Under the pieces are notes generated by a model. That model did not search any database. It was not told the DNA's origin and saw only the letters and a program-made list of their open reading frames with translations. Shown here in pieces: positions 7,589-40,372 of a stretch of 41,222 bases of DNA (positions are counted from its first letter, which is position 1; each line of letters opens with the position of its first letter). Source of the stretch: an uncultured Chlorobiaceae bacterium (GTDB lineage Bacteria; Bacteroidota; Chlorobiia; Chlorobiales; Chlorobiaceae); contig CAIPMW010000044.1 in the NCBI GenBank assembly GCA_903866255.1, forward strand, positions 1-41,222. The letters run 5' to 3'. The translations under genes were made by a program, and so were the position numbers.

Positions 7589-7909
7589 TCCTGGAGGAAA
7601 TCGTCATGATTCCAAAAGGTTTACAACAGAACAAGGTTATGTAAGAACGTCAGAATATAAGCTTTTTCGGTCCATAAGCTTGAAAAAGCATAATATTTCT
7701 GGCGATAAAAATTCAGGAGCTGAAAATTTATATGTCGGCGATTCGATCAGACTCAATGGCAATGTGCCTCAATACGCGCTTCGCGCCGGTCGCTGAGTGG
7801 GCCGAAGGCCGTATCGAAGCGTGGTGCCTCGATACGCGCTTTGCGCTACTCGGCACCCGGATTTGGTGGTAGTTCGGACGGTGAACAGCACAATGCCCAT
7901 GGTGCCGGA
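7589..7909. other. Intergenic region with a hairpin and REP-like repeats
   Basis: No gene is supported here. It contains an 8-base-pair hairpin (GCTTTTTC 7661-7668 with GAAAAAGC 7682-7689) and, from 7764 to 7860, a REP-like repeat described separately. An open frame of 111 codons from 7841 runs antisense through the flavodoxin-like gene and has no protein-like features, so I do not count it. Confidence 0.6.
7764..7860 (+). repeat. REP-like repeat, one full and one partial copy
   Basis: A 57-base unit at 7768-7824 matches the complement of 9754-9810 at 50 of 57 positions by my count. Each copy contains a GGCC-GNA-GGCC mini-hairpin whose only change lies in the loop. A partial direct copy (CTCGATACGCGCTTTGCGC) follows from 7829, creating an inverted pair CGTATCGA (7810-7817) and TCGATACG (7829-7836). 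The pattern resembles dispersed 3'-end repeats known from several bacterial phyla. No repeat-mobilising transposase is in the window. Confidence 0.7.
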
Positions 7910-8362
7910 TTATTCTTGCCCTTTCTTATAGGTTCCGATCAGCTCATCGACATAGTGCGCAATGACGGAGTGGTCACTTACTTGATCTGGCGCAAAGATT
8001 TTTTCGACAAGAATTGTACTGCCGATCAGGTTAAGTTTCAGTTGTGGGAGGTAGAGCAGGTTAGCCATCAGCTCAGGACTACCGCAAGAGAGAAACAGAG
8101 CAATTTTTTTGTTTTGCAGACAACTTTTCAGGTTGCTTTGCAACAGGGCGCCCATAAGTTCAGACGATACCATTAAATAATAGATCGGGGCACCCATTAT
8201 CACCACGTCAAAATCTTTGACAAAGCTGTAATCTCCTGTGCTTTTGCATTTTGCTTTTTCGACATAAGCTCCCGATTCGGCAAGTTTAAGACCAATCAAA
8301 TCGATGAGTTTGTCAGTTGAACCGCCCGACGTTTTGCTGTCGAACAGGATAATTGCTCTCAT
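7910..8362 (-). CDS. Flavodoxin-like protein
   Basis: A soluble protein of about 150 residues (start chosen at the ATG at 8362, where the Rossmann-like strand MRAIILFDSKTSGGSTDKL begins; the frame stays open 23 codons further up, with another ATG at 8386). The first strand and loop resemble an FMN-phosphate loop (SKTSGGST), then FDVVIMGAPIYYLMVSSEL corresponds to the second FMN-contact loop and IALFLSCGSPE to the third strand. This is the fold of flavodoxins and flavodoxin-domain quinone reductases or protoporphyrinogen oxidase HemG, but no feature separates these. It is likely a small FMN redox protein. Between gap and the repeat region it appears to stand alone. Confidence 0.65.
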   Translation of the reverse strand: MRAIILFDSKTSGGSTDKLIDLIGLKLAESGAYVEKAKCKSTGDYSFVKDFDVVIMGAPIYYLMVSSELMGALLQSNLKSCLQNKKIALFLSCGSPELMANLLYLPQLKLNLIGSTILVEKIFAPDQVSDHSVIAHYVDELIGTYKKGQE

Positions 8363-8453
8363 TGGTGTGGCGGCAGAGTGTGTCATAGAGATAAATGGTT
8401 GTGTTGAAAGATCGGGCTGGCACTGATACAAAGTAACGAATAAAGATCAAAAA

Positions 8454-9753: not shown

Positions 9754-9810
9754 CCGCGCTTCGATACGGCCTGCGGCCTACTCAGCGACCGGCTCAAAGC
9801 GCATATCGAG
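9754..9810 (-). repeat. REP-like repeat copy overlapping the 3' end of mpl
   Basis: The complement of this stretch matches 7768-7824 at 50 of 57 bases. The first half of the unit, in mpl orientation, supplies the last ten codons (LDMRFEPVAE) and the TAG stop of mpl; the rest extends past the gene. Confidence 0.75.
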
Positions 9811-11226
9811 GCGCTCCATCAGCATCTGCTTCAACCCACCGAAGCTGCCGTTGCTGAGCAGTGCAATTACATCGCCCTCTTGCAGTTGTGGTTGCAGAAA
9901 TTCCACAATATCGGCCGGATAGTTCGCCCCATCCTGACCGGCAAGAAAGAGGATTTTGCCCTGTTTTTCAAGCTCATCTTTCAGCCGTGCGGTGTTGAGC
10001 GACTTGTCGGGGGCGTAGCGATCAGGGCGGTGCACCTTGCCCATAACAACAATGGAGGCAGGGCCGAAACATTCCGACAGCTCCTGCTGAAAGATGTTCC
10101 GGGTGGTGGTATTTGAGCGAGGCTCAAAGCAGGCGATTACTCTTCGTCCCGCGTAACGCTGAGCAAGCGCCTCAAGTGTTACCCGGATGGCGGTCGGGTG
10201 ATGGGCAAAATCTTCAATCAGGGTGATATTGTGATTGTAGGTGCCAACAATCTCCATCCGGCGTTTGGGGCGCAGGAAGAGCGGCATGGCGTGCGTTATA
10301 GCCTCAATTGAGAGACCGCTGCGGGTTGCTGCGGCAATGGCGGCAAGCGCATTCATAATATTATAGTTGCCGAAGAGCGGAATGCGGAGGGTGGCGATGA
10401 CGGCGCCGTGACGGAGCAGGTCAAAGGTTGATGCTTCATTGTCTGACCGAATGTTGGCGGCGCTCCATTCGCACGCACTGTTCAGGCCGAAGCGCTCAAC
10501 CTTGCAGTATGCTCGGGTGGCAATGTCGAGAGCAACGGGATCGTCACTGTTGAGGAGCAGGAGGCCGTTACGGGGGACAAGGTTGACAAAGAGACGGAAA
10601 CTGCGCTTGATATCCTCAAGGGAGTCGAAAATATCGGCATGGTCGAACTCGATATTGTTGATAATGGCGATGTCGGGGCGGTAGAGTAGGAACTTGCTGC
10701 GTTTGTCGAAAAAGGCGGTATCGTACTCATCGCCCTCAGTCACAAAGAATCCCTCTTCGCTTCGTCCTGAAGCACGGCAGCCGAGAGAGAAGTTTTCAGG
10801 AATGCCGCCAACCAGAAATCCGGGCTTGAGGCCACCATCTTCAAGAAGCCATGCAACCAGCGATGTTGTGGTTGTTTTGCCGTGCGTGCCTGCAACCACA
10901 ATCGAAGTGTTCTTGCCGATCAGATGGTGTCGAACGAGGTCGGGCATAGCTACAAGCTCAAGGTGCTGTTCAAGGGCATATTCGAGTTCAACATTTCCCC
11001 TGCTTATGGCGTTGCCGACAACAATGGCTGTGTCGGGCGACACGCGCTCGATATTCTTTTCCGAAAATCCGTTGCAGTAGGGGATGTTGTGCTGGTCAAG
11101 GAAGCTGCTCATGGGCGGATAGAGCTGGCTGTCTGAGCCGGTAACGGCATGACCTGCGGATGAAAGCGCTACGGCAACCGAGGCCATGGCAGTACCACCG
11201 ATACCAAGAAAGTAAAAGGAGCTCAT
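9778..11226 (-). CDS. mpl: UDP-N-acetylmuramate:L-Ala-gamma-D-Glu-meso-DAP ligase Mpl
   Basis: A 482-residue Mur-ligase family enzyme that attaches recovered murein tripeptide to UDP-MurNAc in peptidoglycan recycling. The start FLGIGGTAMASVA is the Rossmann motif shared with MurC. VAGTHGKTTTTSL is the ATP-binding loop, and GGIPENF, FVTEGDEYDTAFFDKRSKF and NNIEFDHADIFDSLEDI are distinctive of Mpl rather than MurC. The central EDFAHHPTAIRVTLEAL is the usual family motif. No other mur genes are adjacent. Its last ten residues and stop codon are encoded by a REP-like repeat, so the C-terminus may differ from relatives. MurC is the alternative but fits less well. Confidence 0.9.
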   Translation of the reverse strand: MSSFYFLGIGGTAMASVAVALSSAGHAVTGSDSQLYPPMSSFLDQHNIPYCNGFSEKNIERVSPDTAIVVGNAISRGNVELEYALEQHLELVAMPDLVRHHLIGKNTSIVVAGTHGKTTTTSLVAWLLEDGGLKPGFLVGGIPENFSLGCRASGRSEEGFFVTEGDEYDTAFFDKRSKFLLYRPDIAIINNIEFDHADIFDSLEDIKRSFRLFVNLVPRNGLLLLNSDDPVALDIATRAYCKVERFGLNSACEWSAANIRSDNEASTFDLLRHGAVIATLRIPLFGNYNIMNALAAIAAATRSGLSIEAITHAMPLFLRPKRRMEIVGTYNHNITLIEDFAHHPTAIRVTLEALAQRYAGRRVIACFEPRSNTTTRNIFQQELSECFGPASIVVMGKVHRPDRYAPDKSLNTARLKDELEKQGKILFLAGQDGANYPADIVEFLQPQLQEGDVIALLSNGSFGGLKQMLMERLDMRFEPVAE

Positions 11227-25022: not shown

Positions 25023-26006
25023 ATGGAAGAAAATAAGATCGGGGATATTGCTGCGCGATACGTTTCGCGAGGAAATAAAGCAACCCGCACAGGGTTTGGC
25101 GATGCTCTGCTTGACGTCGGCAGGGAGAATAGTTCGGTGGTGGCACTTTGTGCCGACCTGACAGGTTCTCTGAATATGAATCCGTTCAGGGATGCTTTTC
25201 CCGATCGTTTCATTCAGACAGGAATTGCGGAAGCCAACATGATTTCAATGGCGGCTGGTCTTGCCACAACAGGCAAAATCCCGGTTGCCGCAAGTTTTGC
25301 CGTTTTTGCTACCGGCAGGGTATATGACCAGATTCGCCAGTCAGTCTGCTATTCCAATCTCAACGTCAAGATCTGCGCATCACACGCCGGGCTGACGCTG
25401 GGTGAAGATGGCGCTACCCACCAGATTCTTGAGGATATTGGGCTGATGCGCGGCTTGCCGAGAATGACTGTTGTTGTGCCCTGTGATTACAGCGAAACTG
25501 TTCGGGCTACAAAAGCGGTCATCAAGCATGACGGTCCGGTCTATCTCCGTTTTGGAAGACCTAATGTGCCCGATTTCTCACTTGACGAGGATGGCTTTGA
25601 AATTGGCAAGTCGATTGAGCTGCATCCTGGCAAGGATGTTACTGTTATCGCCTGTGGCATCATGGTATGGAAAGCGCTTGAAGCGGCCCGCATTCTCGAA
25701 AAAGAGGGAGTTGGTGTCAGGGTGATCAATATGCACACCATCAAGCCGATCGATACACTGGCAATCGTTTGTGCAGCAAACGACACAGGCGCCATTGTTA
25801 CTGCTGAAGAGCACCAGTTTCATAATGGCCTTGGAGATGCGGTAGCTCATGTCTGCGCCCTCAATATTCCGGTGCCGATTGAGATGGTTGGTGTTGAGGA
25901 TCAGTTCGGAGAGTCCGGCAAATCAGACGATCTTCTTGAAAAATACAAGCTCACAACCGCAGACATTCTTGAAAAAATTTATCTTGCCCTCCGTCGCAAA
26001 TGCTAA
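25023..26006 (+). CDS. Transketolase, C-terminal (pyrimidine-binding) subunit
   Basis: A 327-residue protein covering only the Pyr and C-terminal domains of a transketolase: [20 protein letters not shown] contains the catalytic glutamate that activates thiamine diphosphate, followed by [39 protein letters not shown] and a transketolase_C domain ([33 protein letters not shown]). Such half-length proteins pair with a separate N-terminal subunit that binds the diphosphate. That partner is usually the gene immediately upstream, but here the upstream gene is the divergent rsmA, so the partner must be elsewhere. The related E1-beta of other thiamine enzymes is less likely. Confidence 0.88.
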
Positions 26007-26062
26007 GCCCTGAAGGGGCGATATACACCAGCACAGGGCAAAGCCCTGTGAAATGTATTGGA
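26007..26062. repeat. GCCCTG-rich inverted repeat
   Basis: Directly after the transketolase stop lies AGCCCTGAAGGGGC, then a tight hairpin CACAGGGC (26032-26039), AAA, GCCCTGTG (26043-26050). This style of repeat is scattered through several Bacteroidota and Chlorobi genomes (from memory). It could also act as a weak terminator, though no T run follows. Confidence 0.55.
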
Positions 26063-39973: not shown

Positions 39974-40372
39974 GTGCGACGTGAAGTCGTGTAGGTGAAT
40001 TGTTCTTTGCAGAACCAACTGTGCCGTCAGTTGGCCCCACCGACACATGCAGGAGGAGTAATCAACCTGTGTGAAGCTGTCGGGAAACGTACCCGCAGGA
40101 AACTGTAGGCGAACCCGTGAGGGAATGCTGAATCTGCCAGTAGCAGGCGGAGAGGGTCAAGGGGCAGAGTGAGATGGCTAACGTAAGTGAATCATCAATA
40201 AACATCGTGACTACAAACAAGCGCAAGCTACTGTTACGCTTGAACCAAAATGGTAAGCGGGTAGGTAAAACTTATCTGTTTCGAGTTTACACGGCCCAAC
40301 AACCCCCGCCGGTGAAAAGATGGAGCCTGACTCATTCGTATATTCATTACACGGAACACGGTAAGCCCACAG
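39974..40372 (+). mobile_element. 5' fragment of a bacterial group II intron
   Basis: The sequence opens with GTGCGAC, the group II 5' splice-site consensus, followed at once by the small hairpin GCGAC/GTCGT. It then shows text I associate with domain I of bacterial introns: GTTGGCCCCACCGACACATG, GAAGCTGTCGGGAAACG, CCCGTGAGGGAATG and CTAACGTAAGTG, and, near the break, GGAACACGGTAAGCCC. It stops about 40372 where transposase sequence begins. No reverse transcriptase (LtrA), domain V or 3' end is present, so it cannot splice or move. The identification is by pattern memory. Confidence 0.7.

What the first reader, a model, noticed from the sequence alone, without database searches (positions are those of the whole stretch)
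9754..9810. A dispersed repeat supplies the last ten codons and stop of mpl
The complement of 9754-9810 matches 7768-7824 at 50 of 57 bases. In mpl orientation the unit encodes LDMRFEPVAE and then TAG. The differences include one in the loop of the GGCC mini-hairpin, with the stem kept, suggesting selection on structure. So a mobile repeat appears to have captured the end of a gene, possibly replacing the original terminus and terminator.
Basis: partly seen in the sequence, partly recalled or inferred. Interest (0 to 1): 0.5.

Follow-up and report, generated by a model that had tools for sequence, protein, structure and literature searches.

The report
Palindromic repeat supplies a gene's end
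A short palindromic repeat that is scattered through this green sulfur bacterium supplies the last ten amino acids and the stop codon of a cell-wall recycling enzyme, most likely because small deletions let the gene read into a repeat already sitting beside it; repeats of this kind were already known to provide stop codons.

Summary
The complement of 9754-9810 matches 7768-7824 at 50/57 bases and encodes LDMRFEPVAE-TAG of a true mpl gene. The repeat is a REP-like palindrome (38-nt unit, imperfect 12-bp hairpin with compensatory changes). The genome holds 30 units at about 18 sites, often in inverted pairs; the 57-mer looks like an inverted pair collapsed by an internal deletion. In most REP-free Chlorobium, Mpl ends in ESFQKNP* or similar shortly before gap. 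In a 12-sequence clade a REP follows mpl in nine, in seven of them just beyond a normal stop (mostly ESLG*). Only the window and its sister genome lack that stop and read into the REP. So the repeat did supply the end, but the gene most likely ran into a resident repeat rather than being captured by a fresh insertion. The same tail also ends rmuC in four genomes, menC in one and a cobD/cbiB frame in one. No terminator was shown to be replaced, and no link to RAYT transposases was found. That REP termini provide TAG stops was published in 2013 (PMC3733652). This is a low-copy, clade-restricted member of a known kind.

The parts
9778..11226 (-). mpl, UDP-N-acetylmuramate:L-alanyl-gamma-D-glutamyl-meso-diaminopimelate ligase, 482 aa
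   Evidence: TIGR01081 392.4 bits, residues 5-473; Mur ligase domains
9778..9810 (-). last ten codons LDMRFEPVAE and TAG, read inside the repeat
   Evidence: absent from Mpl of REP-free relatives
9755..9792 (+). complete 38-nt REP unit (GGCC subtype), overlapping the mpl stop
   Evidence: model R1, 61.0 bits, E 9.5e-12
9793..9812 (-). truncated second REP unit in opposite orientation (GCGC subtype), coding in mpl
   Evidence: alignment with the full inverted pair of sister genome G029
7786..7823 (-). complete REP unit of the second copy
   Evidence: model R1, 56.4 bits
7766..7785 (+). truncated unit of the second copy, same junction as at mpl
7823..7860 (+). further complete REP unit next to the second copy
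   Evidence: model R1, 58.0 bits
8609..9613 (-). gap (type I glyceraldehyde-3-phosphate dehydrogenase), downstream neighbour of mpl; the REP sits in the mpl-gap spacer
   Evidence: TIGR01534 441.5 bits, cut-off 367.2; spacer compared in relatives
7910..8371 (-). flavodoxin-like gene whose 3' end faces the second copy
   Evidence: PF12724 27.2 bits, cut-off 27

Best explanation
A clade-specific REP-like palindrome (38-nt unit, often in inverted pairs) came to lie beside the 3' end of mpl in an ancestor of one Chlorobium clade (inferred). In the common ancestor of the window genome and Chlorobium sp. L442-64 a deletion of about 10 nt, between short G runs, removed the old stop, so that mpl read into the first unit (sequence difference shown, order inferred). 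In the window lineage two further deletions followed: 9 nt of the old gene end and about 37 nt inside the inverted pair. They fused the truncated first unit to the second, whose common form reads CCG GTC GCY GAG TAG in mpl's frame and so gives PVAE-stop. The residues past 473 lie beyond the matched part of the enzyme model and are most likely neutral (inferred). The same tail has become the end of rmuC, menC and a cobD/cbiB frame in the same group of genomes.
For: Whole-genome unit counts. Covariation: 49 cells changed on both sides against 20.4 in shuffles. Mpl ends and spacers of relatives. Mpl tree: the clade of 12 has support 98/89, the two read-through genomes are sisters (97/88), and a REP follows mpl in 9 of the 12 rows. 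60 exact REP tails in 11 genomes, of which 9 end an open frame of 100 codons or more; 7 of these 9 are recognised genes. rmuC ends in PVAE* in 4 of 30 loci compared and otherwise in 26.
Against: Three of 12 clade rows (G023, G018, G013) have no REP at mpl, so losses or separate gains are needed. The deletions are read from six sequences, and gap placement in repeats is uncertain; G029 also has 17 nt after the second unit that the window lacks, which the scheme leaves open. Translation to the predicted stop is not shown. Both window 57-mers share one junction, which could mean that a ready-made composite was copied into mpl.
Confidence: 0.8

Rival explanations
1. The 57-nt composite is itself a mobile unit that inserted into the mpl end (or was copied by gene conversion from the 7766 copy, 2 kb away), directly replacing the gene terminus.
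For: Both window copies share the same truncated-unit junction and 88% identity. In a search for the junction allowing 3 substitutions over the loci then held, only these two matched perfectly. At the 7766 locus the sister G029 has one unit and G031 none, while the window has the composite in addition.
Against: At mpl the sister genome has a full inverted pair at the same place, read in the same frame in its first part, from which the window state follows by deletion. REP next to mpl is widespread in the clade.
Confidence: 0.15
2. The similarity arose from convergence or from selection for the peptide, not from a shared repeat.
For: None found.
Against: E = 2e-15; the non-coding part is at least as well conserved (22 of 24) as the coding part (28 of 33); 30 units genome-wide.
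Confidence: 0.01
3. The repeat at the stop has a selected role in mpl expression (3' end hairpin, mRNA stability or slowed termination), so that its placement over the stop is adaptive.
For: The 66-nt mpl 3' end folds at -29.8 kcal/mol, z -2.05. REPs within 15 nt of a stop lower translation in E. coli, as cited in PMC12306157 (passages seen). In 7 clade rows a REP starts soon after the stop.
Against: Three of 12 clade rows have none at mpl. The single unit (z -0.20) and the second window copy (z -0.59) fold no better than shuffles. No expression data.
Confidence: 0.15

Closest known systems
REP sequences of the GTAG superfamily that provide TAG stops to flanking ORFs (Di Nocera et al. 2013, PMC3733652; sections 5, 6 and 15, abstract, outline and passages read)
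   Same: Short palindromes, inverted dimers, location just 3' of ORFs, TAG stop supplied to the neighbour gene, intragenic cases that lengthen proteins
   Different: Here GTAG lies inside an imperfect stem with bulges and not as an unpaired terminal tag; copy number is 30; no RAYT link. The one passage naming Chlorobi concerns CGTC repeats.
REPINs (PMC3116915; search listing and start of abstract only; the definition as inverted REP pairs is recalled)
   Same: Two units in inverted orientation with a short spacer; the pair can form a long hairpin
   Different: No helper transposase identified here; low copy number
E. coli REPs close to stop codons (RepRanger paper PMC12306157; passages read)
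   Same: Hairpins within a few bases of stops
   Different: No sequence relation was tested; here the stop is inside the hairpin

Membership tests
REP sequences | Short (20-40 bp) palindromic unit | tested here: met
   38-nt unit, 12 pairs, 95.1% of cells paired, 6 pairs with a change on both sides
REP sequences | Dispersed, mostly intergenic | tested here: met
   30 units on 13 contigs; 2 sites are at the ends of genes identified by family (mpl, rmuC); some units overlap unverified ORFs
REP sequences | High copy number (over 100 per genome is usual: start of abstract of PMC2817692 in the listing) | tested here: not met
   30 in the window genome; at most 20 in any of the other 60 genomes, a lower bound because at most 110 candidates per genome were scored
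REPIN | Two units in inverted orientation with a spacer | tested here: met
   for example G029 at mpl, G000 C84, C67, C95
RAYT-associated REP | Tied to a RAYT / Y1 transposase gene | tested here: not met
   Y1_Tnp absent from 5 of 12 REP-bearing genomes of the genus, present in 19 of 25 others; no unit in loci L016-L018 around the window genome's three Y1_Tnp places
GTAG superfamily | Unpaired GTAG at one end next to the stem | tested here: inconclusive
   GTAG is common in the units, but in the structure counted three of its four bases pair and it is not terminal
Mpl | Full-length match to TIGR01081 above cut-off | tested here: met
   392.4 against 388.7 bits

The most novel reading that the evidence does not exclude
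In this clade the REP tail CCGGTCGCYGAGTAG acts as a portable in-frame C-terminus and stop (P/S-V-A-E-stop) that is recruited repeatedly by different genes (mpl, rmuC, menC, cobD/cbiB), with the stop placed inside the hairpin so that the end of translation and the mRNA 3' structure coincide; the placement could be favoured, not neutral.
Probability: 0.08. Interest if true: 0.55.

Novelty: new member of a known kind. Interest (0 to 1): 0.25.

Why it matters
It gives a comparative case of how a palindromic repeat parked behind a gene becomes coding: repeat after the stop, stop lost by a small deletion, repeat read through, inverted pair collapsed. Each state except the last, which is the window itself, is seen in a sequenced relative. 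It also adds a REP-like family of a Chlorobium clade whose mover is unknown, and shows the same tail ending four different genes.

Tried and rejected
A strict pattern for the core found only the two window copies; units diverge, partly by compensatory changes, so a covariance model was used instead. Y1 transposases were tested as movers by genome-level presence and rejected as a general explanation; the IS200-type gene on C19 sits among a different repeat. Rfam has no match at the repeat at gathering thresholds. Terminator replacement was looked for in the window and in one relative and not found. Nine proteins, most of them from REP clusters, were scanned: an AAA_15 ATPase, two Bro-N proteins, one DDE transposase, an ABC transporter ATPase, RmuC, and three ORFs without a family; none pointed to a mover. 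Two of the nine long frames ending in a REP tail have no Pfam match and stay unverified. Literature searches: 14 of 14 listed; 20 of 57; 15 of 254; 15 of 32; 15 of 74; 5 of 5; from titles and starts of abstracts, no listed paper describes this family in Chlorobium. The library holds open-licence papers only.

Full report
Observation. The complement of 9754-9810 and 7768-7824 agree at 50 of 57 bases, and over 59 nt at 88%. In mpl orientation the unit reads CTC GAT ATG CGC TTT GAG CCG GTC GCT GAG TAG. The ORF is mpl by TIGR01081; the model match ends at residue 473 of 482, so the last nine residues lie outside it.

What the repeat is. A search of the genome with 60 bases gave 15 matches at E <= 10; only the two window copies cover the whole query, and most others cover about positions 22-58. 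These define a 38-nt unit. Thirty-two distinct units from loci of several genomes, chosen by a sequence profile without structure, align without gaps; rows with indels and several weak rows had been left out. A 12-pair imperfect hairpin, which I named from these same sequences, holds 95.1% of cells paired. It has 49 cells changed on both sides (shuffles 20.4, sd 3.1; none of 500 as high) and a covariation score of 0.328 against 0.133. Six pairs have a change on both sides (shuffles 3.7; 10 of 500 as high), but the number of further pair types is not unusual (13 against 11.7; 118 of 500 as high). Sliding the partner by 1 to 3 columns drops pairing to 22-45%. Much of the signal is the split between a GGCC and a GCGC stem, but other pairs vary too. 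Folding of a single unit (z -0.20) and of the second window copy (z -0.59) is not better than shuffles, whereas the mpl 3' end (66 nt) folds at z -2.05.

Census. The covariance model finds 30 units at E <= 0.001 in the window genome (32 at E <= 1) on 13 contigs, by my count at about 18 sites. Of 61 genomes, 13 have matches: 12 of 37 genomes of the genus including the window's own (30, 18, 14, 1, 8, 9, 6, 9, 17, 20, 18 and 11 units) and one genome of another family with three weak ones. In that call at most 110 candidates per genome were scored with strict filters, so counts are lower bounds.

Gene ends. In the window genome two REP sites lie at the 3' end of a gene identified by family: mpl, and rmuC on C84, where the tail belongs to a partial unit abutting a complete one. 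Other units overlap only short or unverified ORFs. The tail GGTCGCYGAGTAG occurs 60 times in 11 REP-bearing genomes (G010 was not searched); the reversed-pattern control gave 7. Of the 60, nine end an open frame of at least 100 codons. Seven of these nine are recognised: mpl (window), rmuC (G000 and G006 by PF02646; G029 and G023 by homology), menC in G031 (TIGR01927 248.8 bits, cut-off 130.55) and a CobD/CbiB frame in G018 (PF03186, 260 bits; the 217-codon frame covers profile positions 85-270 of 282, so its 5' part lies outside the frame and was not pursued). The other two (G029 C110 and C124) have no Pfam match. That all read VAE-stop follows from how they were counted. Among 30 rmuC loci compared, the four with the REP tail end in DDTPVAE or DDHPVAE. 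In G075 a diverged REP starts a few bases after the stop, and the other 25 show neither in the 110 bases printed, by eye. Seventeen further rmuC matches were not fetched. menC and cobD/cbiB ends of relatives were not compared systematically.

History at mpl. In most REP-free Chlorobium, Mpl ends ESFQKNP* or similar (more distant ones differ, such as LDNFG*), and the spacer to gap, where gap was found, is 100-137 nt. A tree of 31 Mpl proteins, cut before the variable tail, puts all nine rows with a REP at mpl in one clade of 12 (support 98/89); not every relative is in that tree. Within the clade a REP unit follows mpl in G000, G029, G031, L051, G006, G003, L054, G028 and G014 (the last is weak, E 0.025), and none was found in G023, G018 and G013. 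Seven of the nine keep a stop (ESLG*, or QSLG* in G006 and ERLG* in G003) before the REP. Only G000 and G029, which are sisters (97/88), read into it. G029 is Chlorobium sp. L442-64 by matching contig length and coordinates. It reads ESLGRLDTRFALLGDRL*, in the same frame as the window for the first shared codons. Against L051, G029 lacks 10 nt holding the stop. Against G029, the window lacks 9 nt of the old end, 37 nt inside the inverted pair and 17 nt after it; for the 17 nt, loss in one or gain in the other is not decided. G023, sister of G006, keeps a REP-free end of the common type (ENFEKNF*), so either the REP was lost there or it was gained more than once. G019 carries units but no mpl was found in it, and G010 (one unit) lies outside the clade.

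Second copy. At 7766-7860 the window has the composite plus one unit. G029 has one unit at the orthologous place, and G031 has none there. In a search over the loci then held, allowing three substitutions, only the two window copies matched the composite junction perfectly; two other matches needed three substitutions. One copy may therefore derive from the other; which came first is not decided.

Mover. Three Y1_Tnp matches exist in the window genome. Presence of Y1_Tnp does not go with presence of the repeat: 7 of 12 REP-bearing against 19 of 25 other genomes of the genus have one. The mover stays unknown.

Known kind. Di Nocera et al. [quoted passage not shown] The phenomenon is therefore known; the family, the clade and the step-wise history are new as far as the capped listings show.

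Changes made on checking: a fourth gene (cobD/cbiB in G018) was recognised, menC and gap were confirmed by family models, and the count of unfetched rmuC matches was corrected to 17.

Noticed in passing
window 26006-26050 (-): Rfam Acido-Lenti-1 RNA (RF01687) above gathering score.
   Followed up: no
window 40015-40158 (+): Group II intron D1-D4-7 match (RF02012), 104.8 bits.
   Followed up: no
L131 / L198, G000 C84:35666-35740: rmuC ends in PVAE-TAG supplied by the same repeat tail; the same in G029, G006 and G023.
   Followed up: yes
L245, G031 C186 near 6151: menC whose end SVAE-TAG is supplied by a REP tail; similar frames in G000 and G019 end in LWTM with the REP over 100 nt downstream.
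   Followed up: partly
L175, G018 C71:4526: CobD/CbiB frame of 217 codons ending SVAE-TAG at a REP tail; the profile's first 84 positions are not in this frame.
   Followed up: partly
L237, G000 C112:9583-13033: Cluster of ten REP units around an AAA_15 ATPase gene and a 167-aa ORF; in G003 and G028 clusters flank Bro-N genes, as if REPs mark a variable island.
   Followed up: partly
L017, G000 C81:30081-30900: Two Y1_Tnp matches; the coding sequence contains a different palindrome (GCCGAGCTGGAGCTCGGC) that also occurs near a REP on C48 (L010, by eye).
   Followed up: no
L016, G000 C19:7750-8088: IS200-type transposase gene next to several tandem copies of an unrelated repeat (CCCCGAAGGGGGCG type, by eye).
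   Followed up: no
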